From the NCBI RefSeq assembly GCF_012931845.1, contig NZ_CP051884.1, forward strand, positions 2,418,001-2,482,000: 64,000 nucleotides of DNA, read 5' to 3'. Shown piece after piece: positions 10,001 through 32,943 of the stretch; the stretch's first letter is position 1, and each line of letters opens with the position of its first letter. The notes under the pieces were generated by a model. The model worked only from the letters and a program-made list of their open reading frames with translations. It ran no database searches and was not told where the DNA came from. The stretch comes from Cellulomonas taurus (GTDB lineage Bacteria > Actinomycetota > Actinomycetes > Actinomycetales > Cellulomonadaceae). The translations under genes were made by a program, and so were the position numbers.

Positions 10001-10393
10001 AGTGGACATGTCCGTGTCGGCGGTCAGCGGCGCCCAGGTGGCTCCGGCCCCCTGGGTGCCGATGCTCGCGGGGTCGGTGCTGGTGACCTCGATCGCGCTG
10101 TCGGCCAGATCGCCGAGCAGCTCGACGCTGGCCAGGCTCAGGGTCGCGGAGGTGCTGGTGCCCCGGCTGTCACCCTCGTACGGCAGCACGTCCAGCAGGT
10201 AACCCGCCTGGTTCGCGGTGGACGCGCCGTAGTTGTACCAGTTGGCGTTCCATTGCACCGTGGTGTCGGCGGTCTCGATCACGGTCGGGGTGGCCGTCCC
10301 GTCGACCGCCAGCGCCTGCAGCTGCGTGATCCGGGTCGATCCGCTCGCCTTGGCCGTGCCGTCCCCGAGGGGGTCGACCGAGTAGGTGAGCAC
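7034..10393 (-). CDS. LAITG-anchored repeat surface protein, C-terminal part (frameshifted gene, segment 3)
   Basis: This frame, open back to about 10417, carries the C-terminal two thirds of a surface protein; the GTG at 10393 is only the first start-like codon after a frameshift. Residues about 190-290 and 640-715 are SdrD B-like domains (TGTLWNDADGDGIRG; TGQVRADLDGDGELTADEPG...YRFGGLVAGDYTVTV). About six DUF11/DUF7507-like repeats of roughly 100 residues surround them, each with VTNTG and LAPGES signatures. The end has a Pro/Thr wall-spanning stretch, then LAITG at 1086-1090, a hydrophobic helix and RRRASR, the class E sortase signal of actinobacteria. The product would be wall-linked, perhaps an adhesin. 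It continues from segment 2 (10170-12098). Confidence 0.85.
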   Translation of the reverse strand: MLTYSVDPLGDGTAKASGSTRITQLQALAVDGTATPTVIETADTTVQWNANWYNYGASTANQAGYLLDVLPYEGDSRGTSTSATLSLASVELLGDLADSAIEVTSTDPASIGTQGAGATWAPLTADTDMSTVTAVRVATPASGAAGTVRLVLNATGQHGGDVLANSAEAWVGSSVSVSSPSYPVQVVSSTVTGTLWNDADGDGIRGSGENGIGGVLITLVGADGVEHSTRTDAQDGYTLTQLSSGDYTLTADGSTFPNPVLQTAGMGDTLGSGATVSVPQDSTVAEQDFGYHEADAAITLDATGTAPESAKAGDTVTLTFTVTNTGNTPVSEVAVGHGLDAAQSNGSWAWPGTAGTLAAGESATYTVDYTLSQADVDAGRVSTTGTATADYAGTGLTATEEVAVSFDAAAAMTSTVTGVLDGAAKAGAGNTWSATLTNTGAVTLTGLTGSDGTDGTVTWTGVPTSLAPGESVTVTGTSTLTQAQVDAGSASGAITATAEQATSTGSGAVTFAPESTVTVDLTVNGEHQAAPGLIVTDKDALTWSATVTNTGDTTLTGITLVDADGLTGITLADRTLAPGESAVVTGTTTAALGEHTGTVTVTAVGGPDGATITATDAATYTAEPISASSITGQVRADLDGDGELTADEPGIAGVTVTLSTGATTTTDADGTYRFGGLVAGDYTVTVDRSTVNAGRAAVTVSPAGSDSAAVTVAESQALTGVDFGYDLLESGMSVTAELTPLPADPIAGDPVTITYTITNTGENTLTDLGVDTALAGAELTWTWPGTPGELAPGESVTVVVSSVLTEEQVAAGTLAVTGTATGTDIAAETVTASADVSAELVTASAVTVSEVGVLAGEAVVGGTVTWTATVTNTGPATLTGVSLGAGWTLDCDGTLAPGASATATATSVLTQADLDAHLVGSQVTVTAITRSGATLTAAAQAEVQVPAASAIGVRVLIGDQEYPTGTGAAVTTGDELEVSAVITKTGATTLTGITLSDEVAWQLPAGFTGNLAPGESLTVTATQTAVAGSHTLTVTATGTEAGSTVTGTGTAVYTASDRGQDDPPRADPPTTRNPPHDAPPSTTTKLAITGASVGGAGLVALLLVGLGALLRRRASRHEA

Positions 10394-12098
10394 GGAGTTG
10401 GCGTATGCCCGATCGGCGGGGGGCGCCCAGGGCGGTGGTGCCGAGGAGGTTGAAGGCGTACATCGTGGTGGTCGTGCTCGACACCGTGATCGGGTCGTGC
10501 TCGAACACCAGGACGGGTCCGCTCACGTCGTCGCTGGTGGCGGGCAGACCGTCCGGGCCGTAGTCGGCGTCGGTCATCGACACCAGCGTCCAGCCCTGGT
10601 CCAGTGCGTCCTGGTAGTCGACCGTGGTCAGCACCGCCGGCAAGGTCACGGTGAGACTGACGTCCTCGACCACCAACGGATCGGTGGTGGCGGGCGTGAA
10701 GCGACCCAGACCGAAGCCCTGCCGCACCAGGTACGTGATGTCGCTACCGCTCATCACCACGTCGGTCGGCGCCACCAGGCTCGACACGACCAGAGGGGTG
10801 ACAGCGAGGCTCGCCTCCCGGGTCAGGGTGTCCTGGCCGTCGGCCGTCCAGACCGCGGTGGTGGCGAAGGTGGTCGATCCGAGGGCATCGGTGTGCACTT
10901 GGACCGGGACGTTCAGCAGCAACTGGGTGGCGCTGGATGCCGTCCCGCCCACTGCCCACGGGTCGGTCAGGACCACCCGGACACCCTGCACCGCGTCGGC
11001 ACCACCGGCGGCCGCGACGGAGTCGACCCACGTGTTCGCGGCCGGATCGGTGGTGGTGTTCCCGGCGGTGTACTGCACGGTGTACCGGTCGGGATCCACG
11101 GCCTGTCGGGCGGCGGTGAACACCGCGATGTCCGAGGCGTCGCCGACCAGGGTGCCGATCGAGCCGTCCCAGAACTGGTAGCCGACCAGGTTCGTCGCGC
11201 CGACCGATCCGGCATCCCGCCAGTACGCGGGCACGTACTGGGTGCTCAGCAGGGTGGTCGCGTCGTTGCCGATCGGCGAACCGGAGCTCATGGTGGTCCA
11301 GTCGACGTACGGCAGCCACCCCACCGGCAGTGTGTCCACCGGGTCGGCGGTGCCGGAGTACCCGCCGATGGTCTCGGACGCCGAGGCGTTGTACAGCTGG
11401 TCCGGGTCGGTCTTCTCCTCGTAGTACACCGGGATGGCCCTGCTCGCCGAGTAGGCGGGCAGCAGCGTGCTGCCGTCGGCGGCGGTCACCGCGTCGTAGC
11501 TGGTGGTGTACGTGACGTTCGTGGCGTCCGCCTCGGACTGCGGGAGCTTGGCCGCCTGGTAGTACAACGAGACGGTCGGCTCAACCGTGCTGGTCGGCAT
11601 CTGCAACAGACTGAGCGTGATGGTGTTGCCGTCCACGCTGTCCACCCGCAGGTATGCGGCCGAGGTGCCGTTCACCGTGACGGCGTCCGCCACCGGACCG
11701 TCGTAGCTGAGCGTGATCGTGATCGGCAGCGTGAGGGTCGACGGGTCACCGGAACCCGCCTGCTCCACGACCGCGCGCACCTGGACACCCAGGGAGACGC
11801 TGCTGGCCTTCTCGGTGCCGGACCCGAAGTCGTAGCGGGTCGGGGTGGTGAGGCTCGGGGTGGTGGCGGCGACCAACACCTTCAGCTTGCTGGCCACGGT
11901 CAGCGCGGCGGCGGTGGCGGTCTTCGTGCCGGTGCCGTCGGTGCCGATCAGCTCCGGGGTGTACACGCTCCCGTTGGGCACCGTGTTGGCCGGTGTGGCC
12001 TTCAGCCCGGGGATCGTGACCATGGTGCTGTTCGGCACGGACATGGTCGAGGTCAGGGTGCGCCCGCCGTCGGTGACCTGGTAGCTCGACGAGTACAC
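10170..12098 (-). CDS. Surface protein, middle part (frameshifted gene, segment 2)
   Basis: The frame is open from about 12147 and encodes the Thr/Ser-rich middle of the same surface protein. It begins in context as SSPTNLNSTSAVYSSSYQVTDGG and continues to NLLGTTALGAP. After that the frame gives a non-family Arg-rich tail (RRSGIRQL and onward) until the stop at 10170. Removing one C from the six-C run of the coding strand (10418-10423) restores ADRAYANSVLTYSVDPLGDG, which joins segment 3 smoothly. The fold of this part is not recognised; it resembles large actinobacterial isopeptide or beta-sandwich ectodomains. The GTG at 12098 has no ribosome-binding site and is not a genuine start. Confidence 0.8.
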   Translation of the reverse strand: MYSSSYQVTDGGRTLTSTMSVPNSTMVTIPGLKATPANTVPNGSVYTPELIGTDGTGTKTATAAALTVASKLKVLVAATTPSLTTPTRYDFGSGTEKASSVSLGVQVRAVVEQAGSGDPSTLTLPITITLSYDGPVADAVTVNGTSAAYLRVDSVDGNTITLSLLQMPTSTVEPTVSLYYQAAKLPQSEADATNVTYTTSYDAVTAADGSTLLPAYSASRAIPVYYEEKTDPDQLYNASASETIGGYSGTADPVDTLPVGWLPYVDWTTMSSGSPIGNDATTLLSTQYVPAYWRDAGSVGATNLVGYQFWDGSIGTLVGDASDIAVFTAARQAVDPDRYTVQYTAGNTTTDPAANTWVDSVAAAGGADAVQGVRVVLTDPWAVGGTASSATQLLLNVPVQVHTDALGSTTFATTAVWTADGQDTLTREASLAVTPLVVSSLVAPTDVVMSGSDITYLVRQGFGLGRFTPATTDPLVVEDVSLTVTLPAVLTTVDYQDALDQGWTLVSMTDADYGPDGLPATSDDVSGPVLVFEHDPITVSSTTTTMYAFNLLGTTALGAPRRSGIRQLRAHLLGRPPRGRHGQGERIDPDHAAAGAGGRRDGHPDRDRDRRHHGAMERQLVQLRRVHREPGGLPAGRAAVRG

Positions 12099-13332: not shown

Positions 13333-14532
13333 TCAGTCCGGCAGGTGGCCGTGCACCAGCCGACCGCGGGACACCACGGCGACGATGTTCTCGGTGCGCA
13401 GGTCCGCGATGTCCTCCCACGGCCGTCCGCGCAGGATCACGAAGTCGCTGCCCAACCCGGCACGCAGCCGCCCGGTCACCCCACCCAGACCGATCGCGTC
13501 CGCGGCGTCCGAGGTGGCCGACACCAGAGTGCGCTCGGCCGACCAGCGGAACATCGCCGCCATCGTGCGCACCTCCTCCATCTGGTCGCCGAACTGGACG
13601 AACTGCCCGGAGGCGTCGGTGCCGAGCACGAACCGCACCCCGGCCTCGGCGGCGGTGGTGAACCCGGCGTCCCGGATCGCGACGACCTCCTGCGCCTTGG
13701 CCTGGGCCTCCGCGGAGACCGGGCGCCGCGCCTCGGCGATGATGTCGTTGATCAGCAGGGTGGGGGCCACCGGCAGGTTCCGCTCGACCAGGGTGGCCAG
13801 GTGCCGCTCCTCGATCGCGGTGCCGTGCTCGATCGAGTCGACGCCCTCGGCCAGGGCGATGTCCAGGCCCTCGGCGGAGTGGGTGTGCGCGGCGACCAGC
13901 AGGTTCATCGCGTGCGCCTCGTCGACGGTGGTGGCGATCTCGGCGCGGGTCTGGTTGCGCCAGCCGACCTTGTCGCCCATCGAGAGCACCCCGCCGGAGG
14001 TGTAGATCTTCACGCCGCTGGCCCCGGCCCGCGCCCAGGTGCGGACCAGCTTGCGGCACTCGTCCGGGCTGTCGGCGGTCGGCGGGCGGTACGGGTAGTG
14101 CGGCGGCACGAACAGGTCACCGTGGCCGGCGGTCATCCCGACCTGGCCGTGGGACAGCAGGCGCGGACCGGTGAGGATCCCGGCGTCGAAGGCACGGCCG
14201 ACCGCGAGCTGGATCGAGTCCGCCGCCAGGTCCCGCAGCGTGGTCACGCCGCCCCGGGCGCACCGCAGCGCATTGGCCGCCAGGTGCAGCGAGCGCTCCT
14301 CGGCCGGGGTGATCAGCGGCCAGGTCGACGCGTCCTTGGCGGGTTCACCGGCCGGGTACCCGAGGTGCACGTGGGTGTCGATCAGCCCCGGGATCACCGC
14401 CAGGTCGGTGTGCCGTCCGGCCGCTTCCTCCACCGCGAGGATCCGGTCCTCGGACCAGGTGAGGCGGCTCGGGCCGTGCAGGCGCTCGCCGTCCCAGAGC
14501 GGGAGCCCGTCCAGGTGCTGCTCGATCGTCAT
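13333..14532 (-). CDS. Amidohydrolase-superfamily enzyme (imidazolonepropionase/prolidase-like)
   Basis: A 399-residue TIM-barrel metal hydrolase. The metal-binding HxH is H54/H56 in IDTHVHLGYP; later ligands fit AAHTHSAEG, SIEHGT and the terminal Asp in GTDASGQF. The region AGILTGPRLLSHGQVGMTAGHGD and TSGGVLSMGD matches the subgroup that includes Xaa-Pro dipeptidase-like and carbamoyl-hydrolysing amidohydrolases. The substrate cannot be predicted closely. ATG at 14532 has AGGAGA upstream and falls 14 bases after the preceding gene, so it is the last gene of a coupled operon with an ABC importer and a D-aminoacylase-like enzyme. It probably acts in the cytoplasm on an imported compound. Confidence 0.88.
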   Translation of the reverse strand: MTIEQHLDGLPLWDGERLHGPSRLTWSEDRILAVEEAAGRHTDLAVIPGLIDTHVHLGYPAGEPAKDASTWPLITPAEERSLHLAANALRCARGGVTTLRDLAADSIQLAVGRAFDAGILTGPRLLSHGQVGMTAGHGDLFVPPHYPYRPPTADSPDECRKLVRTWARAGASGVKIYTSGGVLSMGDKVGWRNQTRAEIATTVDEAHAMNLLVAAHTHSAEGLDIALAEGVDSIEHGTAIEERHLATLVERNLPVAPTLLINDIIAEARRPVSAEAQAKAQEVVAIRDAGFTTAAEAGVRFVLGTDASGQFVQFGDQMEEVRTMAAMFRWSAERTLVSATSDAADAIGLGGVTGRLRAGLGSDFVILRGRPWEDIADLRTENIVAVVSRGRLVHGHLPD

Positions 14533-14546
14533 GCTGAAAGTCTCTC

Positions 14547-15587
14547 CTAGAGCTGGGGATGAACGGTGGCCAGGACGGTGCCGTCGTCGCCGACGACCGG
14601 GATCTCCCGCCACCGGTCGAACGCACCGCACGGGTGGCTGATCCCGAACCGCAGCGCGGTGCCGGGGGCGAGCCGGACGCCCGCGGGCAGGCGCAGGAAC
14701 GCGTGGTGGTCGTTCACCCCGGTCACCGTCCAGTCCTCGTGGCCGAGCACCACCGGCAGCCGGTCGTCGGTGGGCACCTCGCGCCGGCCGAAGTCGACGA
14801 TCGCCAGGGTGTCCTCCGGCTGGGACAGCACCCGGGCGTGCAACTCCAGCGCCGCCCGGAAGGTGTCCCGCAGCGGCGAGGTGCGCTGGTAGACGCCGTG
14901 ATCATGGGTGAGGTAGCAGCCGGAGCGCAGCACCAGGGTCCCCGGCAGATCGCCGAGGACCGCCAGCACCTCGTCGAAGTAGGAGGAGCCACCGGCGGTG
15001 ACCAGCGGGGCGTCGACCTGCTCGGCCAGCGCCCGGACCCGGTGCAGCAGCGCCGCGCGGGGCGCGGGGTCGTGAGTCAGCCCCTCGAAGGCGGCGATCC
15101 CGGCGAAGGCCACCGCCGGGGTGCCGCGCAATCGGTCGATCAGCGCGCGGGCGGCGTCGTCGTCCCGGAACCCGGTGCGACCACCCGGGGCGCCGAGCTC
15201 CACCAGCAGCCGCAGCGGACGGTCCGGGGTGTGCCGGGCGAGCCGGTCCAGCACCAGGTCGAGCCCGGCGTCCGAGTCGACGTAGGTGAGCAGGTCCGGC
15301 GCACCGTCGACCAGCAGGTGTCCGGCCACCCAGTCGATCGCCTCGGGGTCGACCAGCAGGTTCGCGTGCAGGATCCGCGGCACGCCCCAGTCGGCCAGCG
15401 CGCGGATCTGCCGGGGGGTGGCGGCGGTCATGCCCCAGGCACCCGCGGCCAGCTGCCGACGGACCAGTTCCGGGGACATGTGGGTCTTGGCGTGCGGGGC
15501 CAGTGCGGCACCGGCGGCGCGGCAGTACTCGGCCATCGTCGCCAGGTTGTGCGCGAGGGCGGACTCGGAGAGCACCATCCGGCTCAT
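14547..15587 (-). CDS. PLP-dependent fold-type III enzyme, D-threonine aldolase/alanine racemase-like
   Basis: A 346-residue protein of the DSD1/D-threonine aldolase group. PLP would bind K34 in APHAKTHM. GRTGFRD, FEGLTH, TAGGSSYFDEVL and RSGCYLTHDHGVY follow the family pattern. Near the C-terminus, FGISHPCGAFD supplies the His and Cys that bind the divalent metal in this family. Known members cleave D-threonine, dehydrate D-serine or act on 3-hydroxy-D-aspartate. Beside a D-aminoacylase-like gene, it plausibly processes the freed D-amino acid, which is inference. ATG at 15587 overlaps the previous stop (ATGA), indicating translational coupling. Confidence 0.9.
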   Translation of the reverse strand: MSRMVLSESALAHNLATMAEYCRAAGAALAPHAKTHMSPELVRRQLAAGAWGMTAATPRQIRALADWGVPRILHANLLVDPEAIDWVAGHLLVDGAPDLLTYVDSDAGLDLVLDRLARHTPDRPLRLLVELGAPGGRTGFRDDDAARALIDRLRGTPAVAFAGIAAFEGLTHDPAPRAALLHRVRALAEQVDAPLVTAGGSSYFDEVLAVLGDLPGTLVLRSGCYLTHDHGVYQRTSPLRDTFRAALELHARVLSQPEDTLAIVDFGRREVPTDDRLPVVLGHEDWTVTGVNDHHAFLRLPAGVRLAPGTALRFGISHPCGAFDRWREIPVVGDDGTVLATVHPQL

Positions 15588-17137
15588 GCCCGCAGCACCC
15601 GGCCCGCCCGCTCACCGGTGAACTCGCCGTCCACCACCACCGGGGTCCCGGCCAGCACCGTCCACCGCACGCCGGTCGGTCGCCGCCACGGCTGCTGCAC
15701 GGTGCCGTCGTGGCCCACGGTCTGCGGGTCGATCACCGCGATGTCCGCGATGGCGCCGGGGGCCAGGTAGCCGCGGCCGGGCAGCCCGATCGCCCGGGCC
15801 GGCAGGCTGGTCATCTTGCGCACCGCCTCCGGCCAGCTCAGCACCCCCAGCTCGCGGACGTAGCGGCCCAGCACGGTCGGGAAGCAACCCCAGCCGCGTT
15901 GGTGGGCGTTGCCGACCGGCACCGAGTTGTCCGAGCCGATGGCGATCAGCGGGTCGGCCAGGATCGCGCGCACGTCTTCCTCGGCCATCAGGCGGTAGAC
16001 CATCATCGCGCCGGGGTCGGCCACGATCAGGTCGCACAGGGTGTGCCAGGGATCGCCGCCCAGCTCGGCCAGCGACCGACCGAGCTTCGTGGTGTCCCGG
16101 TGCATGGAGACGAACACGCCGTCCGGGCTGGTCTGCGACCAGGAGCCGGAGCCGGGCCCACCGGCGGCGCCCCGCTGGAACAGGTCATGTCGACCCTCCG
16201 GCGTGGACAGCCGCCGCACCAGTGCCTCGCGGCCACCGATCTGCGCGGCGGCGGGCAGCAGGGCGGTCAGGAAGCTCTCCCCGGTGGTGTACGGGTAGGC
16301 GTCACCGAGCACCTCGATCCCCCGGCCGCGCGCCTCGTGCAGGGTGGCGAGCAGCTCCGCCGACCGGCCGTGGTTCGCCGATCCGGCCGCCTTGCAGTGC
16401 GAGACCTGCACCCGGACCCCGGTGCGCCGCGCCACCTCCAACGTCTCGGCCAGGGAGGCGGTCAGACCGTCCCCCTCGTCGCGCATGTGGGTGGCGTAGG
16501 GCCGACCCCAGCGCGCGGCGACCGCCGCCAACGCAGCGACCTCCTCGGTGTCGGCGTACACCCCCGGGGCGTAGATCAACCCGGTGGACAGGCCGAACGC
16601 CCCCTCCGCGAAGGCCCGGTCGGCCAGCGCGACCATCCGGTCCAGTGCGCCGGGTCGCAGACCCTCGTCCATGCCGTTGGCGCTGATCCGCAGGGTGTGG
16701 TGCCCGACCAGCGACGCGACATGCGTGGTGGGTCCGTGCTGCTCGACCGCGTCCAGGTACTCGGCGAAGGACCTGGGCCAGGAGTCCACACCGGCGGCGA
16801 CCGTGGAGCTGATCGGCCGGTGCAGCTCGACCGCCGTGTCGTCGACCAGCGGTGCCGCCGAGTTGCCGCAGTTGCCGACCACCTCGGTGGTCACTCCCTG
16901 CAGCACCTTGAACGGCTGCGGGTCGGCCATGAACGGCACCACGTCGGAGTGGGTGTGCGGGTCGATGAACCCCGGCGTGACCAGCAGGCCGTCGGCCTCG
17001 ATCACCCGGGTGCCGGTCGGGGTATCCAGGTCGGTGCCGATCGCGGCGACCCGGTCACCGATCACCAGGACATCGGCACGCACCCCGTCGGTCCCGGTGC
17101 CGTCCAGCACCGTCCCACCCCGGACCAGCAGGCTCAC
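15584..17137 (-). CDS. N-acyl-D-amino-acid deacylase (D-aminoacylase family)
   Basis: A 517-residue amidohydrolase. The beta-sandwich start (LLVRGGTVLDGTGT) is followed by GFIDPHTHSD with metal ligands H61/H63 and by EVVGNCGNS with C90, the cysteine metal ligand of D-aminoacylases. HMRDEGDG and the late AIGSDNS motif, with the Asp that acts as general base, also fit. The reaction would free a D-amino acid from its N-acyl form; some relatives act on other acyl or carbamoyl substrates. GTG at 17137 was chosen since it overlaps the permease stop (GTGA). It sits between the importer genes and the PLP enzyme, which suggests uptake and stepwise breakdown of one compound. Confidence 0.92.
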   Translation of the reverse strand: MSLLVRGGTVLDGTGTDGVRADVLVIGDRVAAIGTDLDTPTGTRVIEADGLLVTPGFIDPHTHSDVVPFMADPQPFKVLQGVTTEVVGNCGNSAAPLVDDTAVELHRPISSTVAAGVDSWPRSFAEYLDAVEQHGPTTHVASLVGHHTLRISANGMDEGLRPGALDRMVALADRAFAEGAFGLSTGLIYAPGVYADTEEVAALAAVAARWGRPYATHMRDEGDGLTASLAETLEVARRTGVRVQVSHCKAAGSANHGRSAELLATLHEARGRGIEVLGDAYPYTTGESFLTALLPAAAQIGGREALVRRLSTPEGRHDLFQRGAAGGPGSGSWSQTSPDGVFVSMHRDTTKLGRSLAELGGDPWHTLCDLIVADPGAMMVYRLMAEEDVRAILADPLIAIGSDNSVPVGNAHQRGWGCFPTVLGRYVRELGVLSWPEAVRKMTSLPARAIGLPGRGYLAPGAIADIAVIDPQTVGHDGTVQQPWRRPTGVRWTVLAGTPVVVDGEFTGERAGRVLRA

Positions 17138-17913
17138 GACAGCTGGCCCATCCGATCCAGCACCAGGGTGTCCGCGATCGAGACCACCGCGTAGGCCAGC
17201 ATGGTGACCGCCGCGATGGTGATCGCCGCCGCCCACATCTGGTCGTAGCCGAAGGACCCGGCAGCGCGGGAGATCGCCCCGCCCAGACCCTCACCGGTGG
17301 ACAGCCACTCGGCGATCATCGCGCCGGTGACGGCGGTCGGCACCGACACCCGGGCGGAGGCCAGGGTTGCCGGGATCGCCGCCGGGAGCGCCACCTTGCG
17401 CAGCACCGTCCAGGACGATCCGCCGTAGGCCAGCACCAGGTCGCGGTGCTCGCCGGTCACCGAGCGCAGTCCGAACAGGATGTTCGCCAGCGCGGGCAGG
17501 AAGACCACCAGCAGCACGATCACCGTGACCCCGGTGACGTCCCGGCCGAAGATCAGCGTGATCAGCGGGGTCATCACCACCAGCGGGATGGATCGCAGCA
17601 CCATCGCGGTCGGCATCACGATCCGCTCCGCCACCGGGGAGATGCAGAAGACCACCGCGAGCAGGAAGGCACCGGCCAGTCCGACCAGGTAGCCGATCCC
17701 GGCGTCACGCAGCGTGACGGCCAGGTTGTCGGCGATCACCGTGCGGTTGTCGGCCGCGCCGTCCGTGGTGAACAGCCACTCGAACACCTGCCACGGCTGG
17801 CGGGCGATCAGCGGGTTGACGTCGAAGGCGAACAGCACCAGCGACCAGATGGCGACGGCGATCACGACCGCGATCAGCAGGGTGCCGATCCGGCGGAGCA
17901 GGAAGGTGGTCAT
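17134..17913 (-). CDS. ABC transporter permease, SsuC/ThiX type (second)
   Basis: A 259-residue integral membrane protein with about six helices. The cytoplasmic coupling loop lies around DLVLAYGGSSWTVLRKVALPAAIP, matching the EAA motif of the nitrate/sulfonate/taurine/HMP permease group. An N-terminal helix (LLIAVVIAVAIWSLVLFAF) precedes a short external stretch. ATG at 17913 overlaps the stop of the neighbouring permease, and the two probably form a heterodimeric channel. Substrate follows the binding protein and is unknown. Confidence 0.92.
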   Translation of the reverse strand: MTTFLLRRIGTLLIAVVIAVAIWSLVLFAFDVNPLIARQPWQVFEWLFTTDGAADNRTVIADNLAVTLRDAGIGYLVGLAGAFLLAVVFCISPVAERIVMPTAMVLRSIPLVVMTPLITLIFGRDVTGVTVIVLLVVFLPALANILFGLRSVTGEHRDLVLAYGGSSWTVLRKVALPAAIPATLASARVSVPTAVTGAMIAEWLSTGEGLGGAISRAAGSFGYDQMWAAAITIAAVTMLAYAVVSIADTLVLDRMGQLS

Positions 17914-18683
17914 CCGCGGCGCTCCTTCGCCCAGGGGGTGGCCAGTCGGCCGAGCAACCCGACCAGCCCGTACCCGGCCAGCGAGATCAGCCCGGTGAGG
18001 ATGCTCAGCGCCCACACCCGGTCCGGCATGATCTGGCGCTGCGCGGCATTGAGCGCCACGCCGATCCCGGAGTCGATCCCGCCCAGGTACTCCCCGACGA
18101 TCGCGCCGAGCAGCGCGCCGGGCACCGCCACCTGCAACGCGGTGGCCAGGGCGGGCAGCGCGGAGATGAGCTGCACCTTGCGGATCTGGGTCCACCGACC
18201 ACCGCCGTAGGCGGCGACCAGGTCCAGCGAGCTGCGGGAGGCCGACTTCATACCCAGCAGCGCACCGACCAGCGTGGTGAAGAAGACCAGCAGCGCACCC
18301 AGGAAGATCGCCGAGGCCCGGCCGCCGAACATCGCCATGATGATCGGGCCGATCGCGGTCAGCGGCAGGCAGGAGCTGATCACCCCGACCTGGGTGACCA
18401 CGCCCTCCAGCTTCGGGACGACCAGCACGAGGGAGGCGACCGCCAGGGCGATCAGGTTGCCCCACAGGTAGCCCTGACCGGCCCGGCTCAGCGTCGGTGC
18501 CAGGTTCGCGGAGTAGAACGACCAGCCGTCCCGGCCGACCGAGCGCAGCACGGCGTCCGGGGTCGGGAAGCTGGTGGAGTTGGTCAGCCCGGCGGTCATC
18601 GCCCACCACAGGGCGATCAGCAGCAGGATGCCGACGGTGCCGCCGACCCAGGGGCGGGCCAGCGCGGAACGGAATGCCGACAC
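17910..18683 (-). CDS. ABC transporter permease, SsuC/ThiX type (first)
   Basis: A 257-residue membrane protein with the same fold as the next permease. The first helix is VGILLLIALWWAMTAGL and the EAA-like loop is DLVAAYGGGRWTQIRKVQLISALP. It has about 30 percent visual similarity to its neighbour, so the pair probably arose by duplication. It starts one base before the ATPase stop and ends overlapping the second permease. Having two permeases with one ATPase is normal for part of the NMT1/THI5-type importer family. Confidence 0.92.
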   Translation of the reverse strand: MSAFRSALARPWVGGTVGILLLIALWWAMTAGLTNSTSFPTPDAVLRSVGRDGWSFYSANLAPTLSRAGQGYLWGNLIALAVASLVLVVPKLEGVVTQVGVISSCLPLTAIGPIIMAMFGGRASAIFLGALLVFFTTLVGALLGMKSASRSSLDLVAAYGGGRWTQIRKVQLISALPALATALQVAVPGALLGAIVGEYLGGIDSGIGVALNAAQRQIMPDRVWALSILTGLISLAGYGLVGLLGRLATPWAKERRG

Positions 18684-19517
18684 TCAGTGCTCCCCGAACA
18701 ACAGTCCGGACAGGTGGTCGACCACCTCGTGGAACTCGGGTGTGCGCATCAGTTCCGGGGTGCGCGGCCGCTCGAACGGGATCTCCACGATCTCGACGAT
18801 CCGGCCCGGCCGGGCGGACATCACCGCGACGTAGTCGGACAGCAGCGCCGCCTCGGAGATGCCGTGCGTGACCATCAGGGTGGTGGCCGAGCGCTCGGTC
18901 CAGATCCGCTGCAGCTCGAAGTTCAGCCGCTGCCGGGTCATGTCGTCCAGCGCGCCGAAGGGCTCGTCCAGCAGCAGGAAGTCCGGGTGCACCGCCAGCG
19001 CCCGGGCGATGGACGCGCGCTGGCGCATGCCGCCGGACAGGTGTGCCGGACGGGCGTTCTCAAAGCCGGTCAGGCCGACCAGCTCGATCAGCTCGTCCAC
19101 GGTGCCGTCGTCCTGGCGACCCTGGATCTCCAGCGGCAACTGGATGTTCTTGCGCACCGACCGCCAGGGCAGCAGCGCCGGGTCCTGGAAGGCGATGCCC
19201 ATCCCGGGGGCGCGCTTGCCGGTGGCGACCTCGGTGCCGTTGACCGCGACGGTCCCGGCCGTGGCGGTCTCCAACCCGGCCAGGATGCGCAGCACCGTCG
19301 ACTTGCCGCAGCCGGAGGGGCCGAGCAAGGACAGGAACGACCCGCGCGGGGTGCTCAGGCTGACGTCGGCCAATGCCTGCACCTGGCGGCGGCCGGTCGT
19401 GAACACCTTGTCCAGGCCGGTGATCTGGATGCCGGGCGGAACGGGCGCACCCGCCCCCGCGTCCACCGAGGGGGGCGGGGACGGGGAGGCGGGTGCGGTC
19501 TGGGGGGATTCGGTCAC
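18684..19517 (-). CDS. ABC transporter ATP-binding protein, nitrate/sulfonate/HMP type
   Basis: A 277-residue nucleotide-binding subunit. After a 28-residue Pro/Ala-rich lead it has Walker [10 protein letters not shown], the Q-loop ([10 protein letters not shown]), signature LSGGMRQR, Walker [12 protein letters not shown] and the switch His in MVTHGISEA. The FGALDDMTR sequence is characteristic of SsuB/TauB/ThiZ ATPases. GTG at 19517 overlaps the stop of the binding-protein gene (GTGA). It energises the two following permeases. Confidence 0.95.
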
Positions 19518-20587
19518 TTCAGAAGATCCGGGTTCTCCGCGATGACCTCGTCCAGCAGGCTGAGGTCGAACAGTTCGTCGGCGGTGATGTCGATGCCGGC
19601 GAAGGCCAGCGAGTCGATGGTGCCCTGCTGCAGATCGTCCGAGATCGTCAGCAGGCCGTTGGCCTGGGTGTCGTCGGTGGCGATCAGCTCGGCCTGCCGG
19701 TCGAAGGCCAGGGTCATCGCGTCGCGGTCGTACTCCTGGTCCTTGCCGTACTTGTCGACGGTCAGGGAGACGGCGCGCTCCGGGTCGTCCAGCGCGCCCT
19801 GCCAGCCCTGCACGGTGGCGAGCAGGAACGCCTTGAGCTCGTCCGGCCGCTCGTCGATGGTCTGCTGCGAGGCGACCAGCACCTCGCCCACGATCGGCAG
19901 CCCCTCGTCGGCGAGCAGGAACTCGACGGCGTCGAAGCCCGCCTGCACCAGGGTGGTGGCGCCGGAGGTGGTGTAGCCGATGTAGCCGTCGACCTGGCCG
20001 GTGGTCAGCATCGAGGTGTCGGACAGCGGCACCGTGGTCACGTCCGCGGCGTCGATGTCGTTCGCGGCCAGGAACGCGTTCCAGACCAGAGTGTTCGAGT
20101 CGGAGACGGCGATGGTCTTGCCCGCCAGGTCGTCCGGGCCCTCGATCGGGTCGGAGGCGGCGGAGACCAGCGCGAACGGGTTGCGCTGGTAGGTGGCACC
20201 GATGATCTTGACCTCGGCACCCGCCTGGATCGCGGGGGCGGTGATCAGCGGGGAGGACAGGCCGACCAGCGCCTGGCCACCGGCGACCGCGGCCTCGGCG
20301 GAGGTGGCCGAGGAGCCACCGGCGGTGAGCGTGACGTCCTCGAACCCGGCGTCGGTGTAGAGCCCGTCCTCGACGGCGACGTACTCACCGGCGAACTGGG
20401 TGTTCTTCAGCCAGGACAGCTGCACGCTCACGGCCGGGAAGCCGCCGTCGGAGCCGGAGGTACCGGCGGAGCTGGTGCCGTCGGCACCGTCGGAGCTGGA
20501 GCAGGCGGTCAGCAGCAGGAGTCCAGCGGCTGTTGCGGCGACCGCGGAGAGCAGCCCCTTGACACGGGCACGGGAGGTGCGGGTCAC
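19514..20587 (-). CDS. ABC transporter substrate-binding lipoprotein, NMT1/THI5-like
   Basis: A 357-residue lipoprotein: signal helix [14 protein letters not shown] with C29 at the lipobox, a Ser/Gly-rich linker, then the NMT1 fold starting [25 protein letters not shown]. That opening is typical of binding proteins for pyrimidine precursors and other small N-heterocycles. A hinge segment [19 protein letters not shown] follows. GTG at 20587 has GAGG five bases upstream. It heads the seven-gene operon. Relatives bind HMP, formylaminopyrimidine, riboflavin or other ligands, so the substrate is open. An HMP precursor is less likely because no thi gene is nearby, while a D-aminoacylase and, divergently, adenine deaminase are. 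Confidence 0.92.
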
Positions 20588-20900
20588 GTCTACCTCGGAT
20601 CAGGTTCGGGCGGCCCTCGGACGGGCCACGAGTACGACGGGGTTCATGCAACCCTCCAGCCCCGGCGCGCCGCCATGTGGGATCGTCCGAAGTCCGACCG
20701 CCCCGATGGTGCGATCCGTTGTGCATCCCACCGAGGGCGGTCACATGCCGGACATCTGATCACCCCGCGCTGGCCGATCCTCCAGCCGCAGGAGGCACCC
20801 GCGGCCTGGTCGTTGGGTGATCGTCCGATGTTGCGTCCGAGACCGCTGTGATGGACTTTTCGGCACCCCCGATTCCCCTGTCGAGAGGACGCGCGTCCCT
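20588..20900. promoter_or_regulatory. Divergent promoter region, importer operon / adenine deaminase
   Basis: 313 bases without a supported gene that must hold the promoters of both operons. A small perfect hairpin GGGTT-CATGC-AACCC lies at 20641-20655. GATCACCC at 20758 and GGGTGATC at 20815 form a widely spaced inverted pair that could be a regulator site. On the minus strand the leader ends GAACCTGATCCGAGG, which resembles the 3' part of a TPP riboswitch, but the required CUGAGA element is absent. Confidence 0.4.
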
Positions 20901-21908
20901 GTGTGGCCCACCGCTGAACTCCATGTGCACATCGAGGGCACCCTGGAGGCGCCCCTGATCCGTGCCCTGGCCCAGCGCCACGGCCTGCCCGTCCCTGCCG
21001 GGATCGACGACCGAGCTCCCTACCCTGATCTGCAGGCGTTCCTGGACGTCTACTACGCGAACCTCACGGTGCTGCGCACCGAGCAGGACTTCGCCGAGTT
21101 GACCACCGCCTACCTGGAGCGGGCTGCGGCCGCCGGGGTGCGGCACGCGGAGATCTTCGTCGACCCGCAATCGCACACCGACCGCGGCGTCCCGATCGCC
21201 GCGGTGCTGGACGGCGTGCTCGGCGCCCTGGAGGCCGGACGTGAGCGGTTCGGCATCAGCTCGGGTCTGATCGTCTGCTTCCTGCGCCACCTCGGTCCGC
21301 AGGCGGCCGCCGACACCCTGGAGGCCGTGCTGCCCTGGCGGGACCGCCTGCTCGGGGTCGGCCTGGACTCCTCCGAGGTGGGCTTCCCGCCGTCGCTGTT
21401 CCGCGCCGTGTTCGCCCGGGCCGCCGAGCTGGGGCTGCGCCGGGTCGCGCATGCGGGCGAGGAGGCCGGGCCGGACTACGTGTGGGAGGCCCTGGACGTG
21501 CTGGGTGCGGAGCGGATCGACCACGGCAACCGTGCCCTGGAGGACGCCGAGCTGGTCGCGGTGCTCCGCGAGCGCCGGATCCCGCTCACCGTCTGCCCGC
21601 TGTCCAACCTGGCACTGCGCACCGCCGGACCCGACCTGGCCGACCACCCGCTGGCCGTGATGCTCGACGAGGGCCTGCTCGCCTCGGTGCACTCCGACGA
21701 CCCCGCGTACTTCGGCGGCTACCTGGACGACAACGTCCGGGCGCTGACCACCGCGGGCGCCCTGCCCGAGTCCCTGCTCGGACCGCTGGCGGTCAACGCC
21801 GTGCGTTCCGCCTTCGTCGACGAGGAGCGGCGCGCCGAGCTGCTCGCCGCGATCAGCGCGCACGCCGCCCGGATCGGCGCACCCGACCCGGTGGGGGTGG
21901 CCGCCTGA
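20901..21908 (+). CDS. Adenine deaminase (adenosine deaminase family)
   Basis: A 335-residue metal-dependent deaminase. Motifs in order: ELHVHIEGTLE (H8, H10), GVGLDSSEVGFPPSLF, RVAHAGEEAG with the catalytic His/Glu, ERIDHGNRAL, LTVCPLSNLAL and SDDPAYFGGY. HIEGTLE, AHAGEE and SDDPAYFGGY follow the adenine-deaminase branch rather than true adenosine deaminases, which show HLDG and NTDDP. It would convert adenine to hypoxanthine and ammonia in the cytoplasm. GTG at 20901 was chosen since it places HVH at the usual position; GAGAGGA lies 11 bases upstream. The stop overlaps the DUF296 start by one base. Whether it accepts a modified purine imported by the divergent operon is unknown. Confidence 0.9.
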   Translation: MWPTAELHVHIEGTLEAPLIRALAQRHGLPVPAGIDDRAPYPDLQAFLDVYYANLTVLRTEQDFAELTTAYLERAAAAGVRHAEIFVDPQSHTDRGVPIAAVLDGVLGALEAGRERFGISSGLIVCFLRHLGPQAAADTLEAVLPWRDRLLGVGLDSSEVGFPPSLFRAVFARAAELGLRRVAHAGEEAGPDYVWEALDVLGAERIDHGNRALEDAELVAVLRERRIPLTVCPLSNLALRTAGPDLADHPLAVMLDEGLLASVHSDDPAYFGGYLDDNVRALTTAGALPESLLGPLAVNAVRSAFVDEERRAELLAAISAHAARIGAPDPVGVAA

Positions 21909-22366
21909 TGCGCGCCGCCGAACTGACCGTCGGTCGCCGGTTCGTCGTCGCGCTCGACCCCGGCGACGAGGTGCTGGAGGCCCTGGCGAAGCTCTGCGCG
22001 GAGCAGGACATCCGCCAGGCCACCATCCCGGTGTTCTCCGGTGCGTTCCGCAGCGCCCGGTTCATCGCCGCGCACACCCCGGTGGACGATCAGGAGCCGC
22101 CGCTGCCCCAGGAGGTCACCGTGACCTACACCGAGGGCATCGGCTCCGGCACCATCCTGTGGGACCAGGACACCGCCCGCGCCGTCCCGCACCTGCACGT
22201 CGCCCTCGGGGTGAAGAACACCGGCGCCACCGGCTACGCCGGGCACCTGCTCGGCGGCGAGGTGCACTACACCGCGGAGGTCGTGGTCGAGGAGGTGCTC
22301 TCCCCCGCCCTGCTCCGGGTGCCGGACGCCCGCGCCCACGGGATCGCAACCCTGCACTTCGGCTGA
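21908..22366 (+). CDS. PPC/DUF296-domain protein
   Basis: A 152-residue single-domain protein of the plant-and-prokaryote-conserved family. It keeps the metal-binding HxH motif in PHLHVALG and the trimer-forming core (VPVFSGAF-like strands, GHLLGGEVHYTAEVVVEEV). Bacterial members often sit beside metabolic genes and have no established role; some are called DNA-binding by analogy with plant AHL proteins. ATG at 21908 overlaps the deaminase stop (TGATG), so the two are made together. Its position suggests a role in purine salvage, sensing or complex formation with the deaminase. Confidence 0.88.
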   Translation: MRAAELTVGRRFVVALDPGDEVLEALAKLCAEQDIRQATIPVFSGAFRSARFIAAHTPVDDQEPPLPQEVTVTYTEGIGSGTILWDQDTARAVPHLHVALGVKNTGATGYAGHLLGGEVHYTAEVVVEEVLSPALLRVPDARAHGIATLHFG

Positions 22367-31389: not shown

Positions 31390-32943
31390 TCATGCGTCCG
31401 GGTCTTCTTCGTCGAGGCAGACCATGGCGAGGAAGAGGTCGACGCGGTCGGCCATGGTGCTCATGTCGCGGTTGGTGAGTTCTTCGATCCGCGCGATCCG
31501 GTAGCGCAGCGTGTTCGTGTGCAGGTGCAGGGTCCGGGCGGTCTCCTGCCAGGCACCGCCGCCGTCCAGGAACGCCCGCAACGTCCCGACCAGATCCGCG
31601 TTGTGCCGCTGGTCGTAGGACAGCAGTGGCGCCAGCACCTCGTGGGCGTAGCCGTGCCGGGTGCTCTCGCCCAGCATCCGCAGCAGCGCCCGGTGCCCCT
31701 GCACGTGCAGGGCGGTGGACACCAGCACCGGGTCAGTGCCCACGGCGTTCTGCGCTCGCTCCAACGCCGTCGCCAACGCCGAGTTCAACCGGCTCACCCC
31801 GGACACCGGGTCGCTGATCCCGATCCGCAGCTGACGACCCGCCAACAATGACCCGTGCTCGGCGGTCAACTGGTCGGCCAGCGGCAGCTCCGGCTCCTCC
31901 GACCCGTTCACCAGCAGGAACACCGTGTCGTCGATCGGCGCGCCCATCACCCGGTGCCCCCGCGCCGCCAGCGTGCGCTGCACCATGTCCTGCACGGCCG
32001 CCACCGGGAACCGCGGATCCTCCACCCGGGCGACCAGCACCGTCTTCTCGTCCTGCGGCGCCAGACCCTCCAGCCGCATCCGCGCCGAGATCGCCCCGGG
32101 CGATGCCTCCTGGTCCCGGATCGAGCGCACCAGCTCCGCCACCTGGGCATTGCGGGTCTGCCGCCACCGGCTGGTCAGCTCCATCTCCACCCGAAGCGCA
32201 CCGACCAGGGCATCCACCGCCAGGCCCATCTCCTCCGAGAACCCCCGGTGGTCACCCCAGCAGCCGAAGAACCCGGTCCGATCCCGACCACCGATCCGGG
32301 TGACCGTCGCCGGGCCGCGCTCCCCCACCACGATCAGGCGCTGCTCCTCGTCGCGGCGCAGCATCGTGTTCCACTGCTCCGCCACCTGCACCCGCTCCGG
32401 CACCTCGCCCGCCGACGCCAGCATCGTCCCGGTCTCGTCGATCACCCAGCAGCCCACCGCGAACTCCGCGCTGAACAACGCGAGCAGCTCGCTCAGGCCG
32501 CCGCCCCGGGACACCGTGTCCGCCAGCCGCCGACTGAACTTCATCGAGCGCTCGGCCATCCCGCTCGCCGAGCCCGGCTGCCCGCCCGCGATCACATCGG
32601 CGATCCGCCGGAACGACACCCCCGGCGACACCGTCAGAAGCGTCAGCCCCAGCTCCCGCGAGCGCTCGATCACCTCGTCCGGGATCACGCCGATCTCGAT
32701 CAACCCCACGACCACCGCTGCCACCTGCTGCCGCGCCAGCGCCCCGAGGAAGGTCGCCGCCCCGTCCTCGCGGTCCAGCCACAGGCCACTGGTCAGCACC
32801 AGGTCGCCCGTGGACAGGAACCGCGACGGGTCGGGCAGGTCGGTGATGTACGCGGCGGTGACCGGCCGATCCAACGCGTCGGGCTCGGCGGTCACCAGGC
32901 TCAGGCCGAGCTCCGGCGTCGCGAGCAGCTCACGGACGTCCAA
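31390..32943 (-). CDS. PucR-family transcriptional regulator
   Basis: A 517-residue regulator. Residues 1-120 form the PucR N-terminal domain (ITDLPDPSRFLSTGDLVLTSGLWL, then a VVGLIEIGVIPDEVI segment). A central GAF/GGDEF-like region follows. The C-terminus has the PucR helix-turn-helix FLDGGGAWQETARTLHLHTNTLRYRIARIEELT, which differs from the classical type because DNA binding is C-terminal. Family members control purine, amino-acid or polyamine catabolism. Neighbours are sugar-uptake genes; the purine-related genes lie 10 kb away, so its target is not evident. Confidence 0.93.
   Translation of the reverse strand: MDVRELLATPELGLSLVTAEPDALDRPVTAAYITDLPDPSRFLSTGDLVLTSGLWLDREDGAATFLGALARQQVAAVVVGLIEIGVIPDEVIERSRELGLTLLTVSPGVSFRRIADVIAGGQPGSASGMAERSMKFSRRLADTVSRGGGLSELLALFSAEFAVGCWVIDETGTMLASAGEVPERVQVAEQWNTMLRRDEEQRLIVVGERGPATVTRIGGRDRTGFFGCWGDHRGFSEEMGLAVDALVGALRVEMELTSRWRQTRNAQVAELVRSIRDQEASPGAISARMRLEGLAPQDEKTVLVARVEDPRFPVAAVQDMVQRTLAARGHRVMGAPIDDTVFLLVNGSEEPELPLADQLTAEHGSLLAGRQLRIGISDPVSGVSRLNSALATALERAQNAVGTDPVLVSTALHVQGHRALLRMLGESTRHGYAHEVLAPLLSYDQRHNADLVGTLRAFLDGGGAWQETARTLHLHTNTLRYRIARIEELTNRDMSTMADRVDLFLAMVCLDEEDPDA

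What the first reader, a model, noticed from the sequence alone, without database searches (positions are those of the whole stretch)
13333..20587. Fully coupled seven-gene operon for uptake and breakdown of an unknown acylated or N-heterocyclic compound
An NMT1-type binding protein, ATPase and two permeases are followed by a D-aminoacylase-like enzyme, a D-threonine-aldolase-like PLP enzyme and another amidohydrolase. Five of the six junctions are 4-bp ATGA/GTGA overlaps. Strict coupling of importer and three enzymes implies one pathway: import, deacylation to a D-amino acid, then PLP chemistry, with the last amidohydrolase acting on another amide or ring. No described pathway with exactly this set comes to mind.
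Basis: partly seen in the sequence, partly recalled or inferred. Interest (0 to 1): 0.7.

Follow-up and report, generated by a model that had tools for sequence, protein, structure and literature searches.

The report
Purine-linked D-amino-acid scavenging operon
A set of genes that travels as one block in some Cellulomonas soil bacteria and appears to import a purine-type compound and strip nitrogen from it with a purine deaminase, two other amide-cutting enzymes and a D-amino-acid deaminase; what the compound is remains unknown.

Summary
The seven-gene operon is real, but 4 (not 5) of 6 junctions are 4-bp overlaps, and the PLP enzyme is of the D-serine-dehydratase type (H318/C320), not the aldolase type. 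The unit is larger than described: a divergent A_deaminase gene (ADD, probably adenine-type), usually a PCC/DUF296 gene and a PucR regulator go with it. In 81 genomes of the genus, orthologues of SBP, DAA, DTA, AH and ADD are in the same 16 and in none of the other 65. The importer belongs to a purine-linked family: its relatives in 14 sister genomes lie beside guanine deaminase in 12, and 14 of 20 loci read across the order carry xanthine dehydrogenase, guanine deaminase or ADD, against 0 of 27 controls. No TPP riboswitch was found. Three relatives keep importer genes, AH and PucR without the D-aminoacylase/deaminase pair, and that pair also occurs alone. Best reading: nitrogen scavenging from a purine (probably adenine) conjugate, with an N-acyl-D-amino-acid cassette added. 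The substrate is inferred; t6A-like nucleobase breakdown is a bold, untested reading. New variant of a known kind; moderate interest.

The parts
19514..20587 (-). SBP: NMT1/THI5-type binding lipoprotein, 357 aa
   Evidence: PF09084 2.5e-38; purine-linked importer family by context and tree
18684..19517 (-). ABC ATPase, 277 aa; 4-bp overlap with SBP
   Evidence: PF00005; junction
17910..18683 (-). permease 1, 257 aa; abuts the ATPase stop
   Evidence: PF00528
17134..17913 (-). permease 2, 259 aa; 4-bp overlap
   Evidence: PF00528
15584..17137 (-). DAA: D-aminoacylase-like amidohydrolase, 517 aa, GTG start, 4-bp overlap
   Evidence: best PDB 1m7j D-aminoacylase 2.7e-82, 159 of 385 residues identical in the printed blocks; 10 of 10 checked residues kept
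14547..15587 (-). DTA/DSD: fold-type III PLP enzyme of the D-serine dehydratase type, 346 aa; PLP Lys34, metal His318/Cys320; 4-bp overlap
13333..14532 (-). AH: Amidohydro_1 enzyme related to prolidases and L-Arg carboxypeptidase, 399 aa; 14-bp gap with SD upstream
   Evidence: best PDB 3mtw 1.9e-44; H54, H56, K175, H216, H236, D306 invariant in 20 sequences
20817..21908 (+). ADD: divergent A_deaminase gene, probably adenine-type; the true start is probably downstream of the listed GTG
   Evidence: PF00962 1.7e-84; PDB 3rys 2e-100 and 3ou8 1.4e-91, both named adenosine deaminase there; SDDPAYFGGY motif; conserved partner
21908..22366 (+). PCC/DUF296 protein, 152 aa, ATG overlapping the ADD stop by 1 bp; H95, H97, H113 invariant in 12 sequences
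   Evidence: PF03479 1e-15
31390..32943 (-). PucR-family regulator; close to the cluster in most relatives, about 9 kb away here
   Evidence: PF07905 and PF13556; family in 12 of 15 compared loci, window included
20676..20690 (-). putative operator copy 1, TCGGACGATCNCNCA
   Evidence: 2 matches in the window, mean 0.39 in shuffles, 5 of 100 shuffles reach 2; conserved in alignment
20814..20828 (-). putative operator copy 2, overlapping the listed ADD start

Best explanation
The unit scavenges nitrogen (and some carbon) from a purine conjugate, most likely one carrying an adenine-type ring and an amide-linked amino-acid part. A purine-family ABC importer takes it up. AH, a metal-dependent hydrolase related to prolidases and carboxypeptidases, cleaves an amide bond. 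ADD, expressed from the shared divergent region, removes the 6-amino group of the purine. DAA frees a D-amino acid from an N-acyl or N-carbamoyl group, and the D-serine-dehydratase-type PLP enzyme turns it into a 2-oxo acid and ammonia. PucR probably senses the compound. Shown: gene set, families, kept catalytic residues, linkage, all-or-none inheritance. Inferred: the substrate, the order of steps, and that one molecule feeds all enzymes.
For: All-or-none: orthologues of AH, SBP, DAA, DTA and ADD in the same 16 of 81 genomes (sets compared). ADD recurs in other arrangements: ADD-AH in L094, ADD-PucR-AH in L111, another ADD subtype after AH in L053 and L115. Importer family is purine-linked: 12 of 14 sister loci have GuaD and XdhC, 8 of 14 XDH (GuaD); 14 of 20 order loci have XDH, GuaD or ADD, 0 of 27 controls; L166 reads SBP-ADD-ATPase-permeases-nucleoside hydrolase-ADD2. 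The SBP tree groups module and minimal loci (17 tips, support 0.984) beside a clade that includes three ADD-linked importers. PucR in 10 of 12 module loci. DAA and DSD residues kept. Published DAA/DSD logic: OngB-OngC (passages); a D-aminoacylase homologue in purine breakdown, UacY (passages).
Against: No ligand or activity is known. DAA and DTA also pair without purine genes: 23 of 27 control loci hold both and none has XDH, GuaD or ADD, and in the genus itself weaker DAA and DTA relatives lie 419-699 bp apart in 4 genomes without the module (G222, G235, G238, G240) and 50-585 bp apart in 3 with it. AH is not tied to the NMT1 importer: L093 and L112-L114 have an oligopeptide-type importer and L052 a BMP-type one. 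Of 10 variant loci only 7 have ADD, 6 PCC and 5 PucR. Six of 20 order loci show none of the three purine genes. PCC was not found in L054 and L055. NCBIfam and the PDB entries call the ADD family adenosine deaminase; 'adenine-type' rests on a motif distinction that I recall. The window genome has no XDH match.
Confidence: 0.47

Rival explanations
1. Two nitrogen pathways under one control: purine import and deamination (importer, ADD, AH) plus an independent N-acyl-D-amino-acid cassette (DAA, DSD); no single molecule feeds both.
For: DAA and DTA occur together without XDH, GuaD or ADD in 23 of 27 control loci and as weaker neighbouring relatives in 4 genus genomes without the module; L094, L111 and L117 lack the pair.
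Against: The orthologous DAA and DTA are found only in the 16 genomes that have importer, AH and ADD; the 4-bp overlap of permease 2 and DAA suggests coupled translation.
Confidence: 0.33
2. One reading: importer of N-acyl-D-amino acids or D-dipeptides, with purine-like neighbours incidental.
For: DAA and DSD keep their catalytic residues; AH resembles dipeptide and carboxypeptidase enzymes.
Against: The importer family sits with purine genes across the order; ADD co-inherited in 16 of 16.
Confidence: 0.1
3. An ong-like route for oxidised amino-sugar acids (N-acetylglucosaminate to KDG).
For: OngB and OngC are annotated as a D-aminoacylase and a D-amino-acid deaminase (PMC9537276 passages).
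Against: None of the 11 window proteins scanned against Pfam is a sugar kinase, hexosaminidase or RidA; ADD and a purine-family importer are there instead.
Confidence: 0.04
4. Thiamine-pyrimidine salvage through a ThiY-like binding protein.
For: One of the two solved-structure sequence hits of the SBP is the N-formyl-aminopyrimidine-binding protein 3ix1 (2.1e-9).
Against: No TPP riboswitch in 12000-33500; none of the 11 scanned window proteins is a thiamine enzyme; purine-linked family.
Confidence: 0.03

Closest known systems
ong cluster of Pseudoalteromonas (OngB-OngC; PMC9537276, passages seen)
   Same: D-aminoacylase-like deacetylase followed by a fold-III PLP D-amino-acid deaminase as two successive catabolic steps
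   Different: Its passages name two transporters (one SSS-type), a sugar kinase, hexosaminidase, RidA and a MurR/RpiR regulator; here an NMT1 importer, ADD, AH and PucR
Reductive urate pathway with UacY (PMC12507026, passages seen)
   Same: A D-aminoacylase homologue used in purine breakdown
   Different: The passages describe reductive dearomatisation by XDH-like and flavo- or PydA-like enzymes; nothing like ADD, DSD or an NMT1 importer appears in the passages seen
Purine catabolic clusters with the same importer family (L118, L119, L123-L133; 14 of L165-L184)
   Same: Homologous SBP (40-55%) and ATPase (61-71%) with permeases
   Different: No AH, DAA or DTA (0 of 14 and 0 of 20)
DAA-DTA pairs of Nonomuraea (among L057-L089)
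   Same: D-aminoacylase-like and DSD-type genes close together on one strand
   Different: DAA only 32-39% identical; no SBP of this family, ADD or AH found

Membership tests
D-aminoacylase / N-acyl-D-amino-acid deacylase (DAA) | metal and substrate residues of A. faecalis D-aminoacylase (roles recalled) | tested here: met
   10 of 10 positions identical to 1m7j: H61, H63, C90, Y189, H217, H247, K249, Y281, D403, R414
D-aminoacylase / N-acyl-D-amino-acid deacylase (DAA) | activity on N-acyl-D-amino acids | not testable with these tools
   -
D-threonine aldolase | His-x-Asp metal pair (AxDTA H347/D349) | tested here: not met
   H318/C320; distinction from PMC4401734 passages
D-serine dehydratase/deaminase | PLP Lys, His-x-Cys metal pair, D-ser_dehydrat domain | tested here: met
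   K34, H318, C320, PF14031 5.2e-16, 3gwq best hit; invariant in 11 sequences
D-serine dehydratase/deaminase | activity | not testable with these tools
   -
adenosine/adenine deaminase (A_deaminase) | family score and HxH, HAGE, DD motifs | tested here: met
   TIGR01430 329.6 against 216.55; motifs
adenine (not adenosine) subtype | SDDPAYFGGY in place of NTDDP (distinction recalled) | tested here: inconclusive
   motif present, but NF006850 'adenosine deaminase' scores 412.5 against 419 and PDB names are adenosine deaminase
Xaa-Pro dipeptidase NF051886 (AH) | score above curated cutoff | tested here: not met
   187.9 against 500 bits
amidohydrolase superfamily (AH) | metal residues (ligand roles by homology, recalled) | tested here: met
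   H54, H56, K175, H216, H236, D306 invariant in 20 sequences
ThiXYZ thiamine-precursor importer | TPP riboswitch nearby | tested here: not met
   Rfam, 12000-33500: none
purine importer family | linkage to purine catabolic genes | tested here: met
   12 of 14 and 14 of 20 loci, 0 of 27 controls
purine importer family | purine binding by SBP | not testable with these tools
   model obtained (mean pLDDT 81.7), but fold searches were not accepted

The most novel reading that the evidence does not exclude
The module is a catabolic route for modified RNA nucleobases that carry an amino acid on adenine N6, such as N6-threonylcarbamoyladenine (t6A base): AH or DAA splits the carbamoyl-amino-acid part, ADD deaminates the adenine (or N6-substituted adenine), and the DSD-type enzyme deaminates the hydroxy-amino acid. 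It would be a route for environmental turnover of a universal tRNA modification; my library searches listed none. The D-specificity expected of DAA and DSD against the L-threonine of t6A is a real problem for this reading.
Probability: 0.06. Interest if true: 0.8.

Novelty: new variant of a known kind. Interest (0 to 1): 0.45.

Why it matters
It ties an uncharacterised branch of NMT1-type importers to purines, gives a concrete ligand class to test, and shows D-amino-acid enzymes joined to a purine-scavenging core in recognisable partial forms (importer with ADD; importer with AH, PucR and ADD; the same with DAA; the full set). If one molecule feeds all enzymes, it would be a purine-amino-acid conjugate whose breakdown I did not find described in the library searched.

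Tried and rejected
Thiamine salvage: set aside on Rfam and linkage. Aldolase chemistry: rejected on His-x-Cys. Chance neighbours: rejected by co-inheritance in the same 16 genomes. RNA elements: only one sub-threshold miRNA match, 26 against 88 bits. Alphaproteobacterial SBP relatives: three of the listed plasmid hits were looked at (H33, H36, H46); in all three the SBP, ATPase and a permease gene are followed by a glycosyltransferase gene, and no purine gene is annotated in the stretch shown. Plasmid hits of DTA (535 records, all under 60% identity) and most of those of AH (312 records) and SBP (339 records) were not followed. Paper searches whose listings showed no description of this gene set: (open-licence PMC library; for broad searches only the top 10-20 titles and abstract starts were seen). 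Papers seen as passages only: PMC12507026, PMC9537276, PMC4401734, PMC13054789 (51, one reference passage), PMC7356986, PMC9870897, PMC10781821, PMC13081902; none was read whole. Structure: the SBP model arrived late (mean pLDDT 81.7, pTM 0.78; residues 1-47 below 50); comparison with solved structures could not be run.

Choices before counts: the 27 control loci are those of L056-L089 of at least 14 kb, without L088 (27 of 34); most are Nonomuraea, so not independent. Of the SBP matches (71 of 396 genomes) I read 20 loci from 13 genera. ORF calling was a simple GC-position script, which merges or misses some genes; counts come from tblastn.
Full report
What is there. The window lies in a complete 3.44-Mb genome whose nearest named relatives at this locus are Cellulomonas; the genus is inferred from that. 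Seven minus-strand genes run from 20587 to 13333: binding protein, ATPase, two permeases, D-aminoacylase-like enzyme (DAA), PLP enzyme (DTA), amidohydrolase (AH). Four junctions overlap by 4 bp, ATPase and permease 1 abut, and DTA/AH has a 14-bp gap with AGGAG.

It is a larger unit. On the other strand an A_deaminase gene (ADD, listed ORF 20817-21908) and a PCC/DUF296 gene (21908-22366, start codon overlapping the ADD stop) diverge from it. A scan of named genomes with DTA gave 48 loci. Nine show all seven genes in order with ADD divergent (L042, L043, L044, L047, L048, L050, L051, L054, L055); L045 and L049 show the same up to DTA, where the contig ends; L046 and L086 begin at or inside DTA and go on to AH; L053 (Subtercola) is rearranged; L052 (Glaciihabitans) keeps PCC, AH and DTA with another importer; the other 33 have DTA with or without DAA and no AH, ADD, SBP or PCC match. 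PCC was not found in L054 and L055. A PucR-family gene is in 12 of 15 compared loci, window included; L042, L043 and L046, where it was not seen, do not cover the place. In the window it is about 9 kb off, at 31390-32943.

All-or-none inheritance. In the 81 genomes of the genus held, AH is in 16. SBP at 78% or more, DAA at 76% or more, DTA at 66% or more (partial at a contig start in one, G266) and ADD at 70% or more are in the same 16 (sets compared). The other 65 have only weaker relatives: 14 an SBP at 43-48%, 8 a DTA at 46-48%, 5 a DAA at 35-38%, 3 an ADD at 55-56%. In four of these genomes (G222, G235, G238, G240) the weaker DAA and DTA lie 419-699 bp apart, and three of the 16 (G209, G260, G269) have such a second pair as well. 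Outside the genus AH is rare: 10 of 396 order genomes at 1e-70, three of the ten in this genus; 3 of 394 class genomes at 1e-80, own included.

The importer belongs to a purine-linked family. The 14 SBP relatives in sister species lie beside a guanine-deaminase-type gene and XdhC in 12 of 14 loci and xanthine dehydrogenase in 8 of 14. The guanine-deaminase name rests on 1wkq and 1tiy at about 5e-40; NCBIfam gave only below-cutoff TadA and RibD matches, and the XDH and XdhC proteins also score below their NCBIfam cutoffs. With an SBP profile, 71 of 396 order genomes match. Of 20 loci read from 13 genera, 10 have XDH, 5 an ADD member, 1 GuaD and 14 at least one of these; of 27 control loci around unrelated DTA genes none has any (the controls are mostly one genus). 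In one locus (L178) an allantoinase (TIGR03178, 533.5 bits against 357.85) and an 8-oxoguanine deaminase (NF006055, 634.9 against 532) were confirmed by profile. In L166 one run reads SBP, ADD (52%), ATPase, permeases, nucleoside hydrolase (PF01156), second ADD. The tree of 56 SBPs, rooted on three alphaproteobacterial ones, puts window, module and minimal loci (and the unlinked L184) in one clade (17 tips, support 0.984) beside a clade with three ADD-linked (L166, L169, L172) and three unlinked importers; the other main clade holds the XDH-linked ones, both copies of L177 and four unlinked loci. Support of the deeper nodes was not printed. Against: six of 20 loci show none of the three purine genes (L165, L167, L168, L173, L179, L184); three of these are one shared block in one genus, and L184 is cut at a contig end. 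None of the 16 module genomes, the window's included, has an XDH match at 1e-80, whereas 26 of the other 65 do, so hypoxanthine would presumably be salvaged rather than oxidised by such an enzyme.

Enzymes. The PLP enzyme has K34, H318 and C320 where the aldolase AxDTA has K59, H347 and D349; the AxDTA paper says that chicken D-serine dehydratase uses His and Cys (PMC4401734 passages). So dehydration/deamination is the expected chemistry. AH's best solved relative is named an L-arginine carboxypeptidase, and others prolidases, an ochratoxinase and putative amidohydrolases; its metal residues are invariant in 20 sequences, but it scores 187.9 against 500 for the Xaa-Pro dipeptidase model, so its substrate is open. 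An aminoacylase paper that cites the cog1228 prolidase work (PMC10781821 passages) describes hydrolysis of N-acyl-L-amino acids; its kinship to AH was not tested. ADD: the databases used call this family adenosine deaminase; that the SDDPAYFGGY subgroup is adenine-specific is recalled.

Variants. L094 and L111 have importer, ADD, AH and PucR but no DAA or DTA. L117 has permeases, ATPase, PucR, PCC and AH on a 6-kb contig, without SBP, DAA or DTA; the same genome has an SBP at the end of another contig (L184). L115 has PucR, an LLM monooxygenase (TIGR03860), PCC, importer, DAA, AH and an ADD with the NTDDP motif, but no DTA. L053 has an LLM gene, DTA and an ADD of that other type (its locus ends before the motif). 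L112-L114 join AH and PCC to an oligopeptide-type importer (Pfam checked in L112 only), an ade-family protein (L112: 347.9 against 472.5 bits for TIGR01178; seen in L113 by eye, not resolved in L114) and an ADD with NTDDP. L093 has AH and an importer that looks the same by eye. L116 has AH with a 24% ADD. L052 has a BMP-type importer (by eye) and a creatininase-family enzyme (PF02633). Over these 10 variant loci (L052, L093, L094, L111-L117), 7 have ADD, 6 PCC, 5 PucR, 1 DAA and 1 DTA. This fits stepwise growth on a purine core, and it is also the main evidence against a fixed single pathway.

Regulation. TCGGACGATCNCNCA lies at 20676-20690 and 20814-20828 in the divergent region; with up to one mismatch there are 2 matches in the window against a mean of 0.39 in shuffles, and 5 of 100 shuffles reach 2, so alone this is weak. 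A longer form (TTCGGANGATCCCACATGGCG) has an exact match in 13 of 184 loci, all of them copies of this divergent region; L054 and L055 have it only with changes. The second short copy overlaps the listed ADD start, so the real start is probably downstream.

What it is. Best reading: nitrogen scavenging from a purine, probably adenine, conjugate with an N-acyl-D-amino-acid cassette. The nearest described logics are OngB-OngC (PMC9537276 passages) and UacY (PMC12507026 passages). The listings of my paper searches showed no description of this gene set. The substrate is not shown.

Noticed in passing
L118, L119, L123-L133: A related NMT1-type importer, in all but one of these loci (L127) beside guanine deaminase and XdhC, often XDH: an apparently uncharacterised purine importer branch in Cellulomonas, with kin across the order.
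   Followed up: yes
L112-L114: Cluster of AH, PCC, an adenosine-type deaminase and an oligopeptide-type importer, in L112 also an ade-family protein, a GntR-UTRA regulator and an acyl-CoA-dehydrogenase-like flavoprotein.
   Followed up: partly
L053 12015-13385, L115 1872-3236, L172 10474-12048: LLM flavin monooxygenases near the importer and ADD (TIGR03860 in L053 and L115; L172 judged by eye), suggesting an oxidative step in some versions.
   Followed up: partly
21908-22366 (+): PCC/DUF296 protein with three invariant histidines; it could be a metal enzyme rather than a DNA-binding protein (relation to the acetolactate decarboxylase fold is recalled, not tested).
   Followed up: no
L095 (own genome 2629374-2630942) and L096 (504898-505941): A second D-aminoacylase-like gene next to a RidA-like ORF (by eye), and a second DSD-type gene (45%) far from it, both outside the operon.
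   Followed up: no
7034-12098 (-): Large ORFs (1119 and 642 aa) that look like repeat-rich cell-surface proteins, by eye.
   Followed up: no
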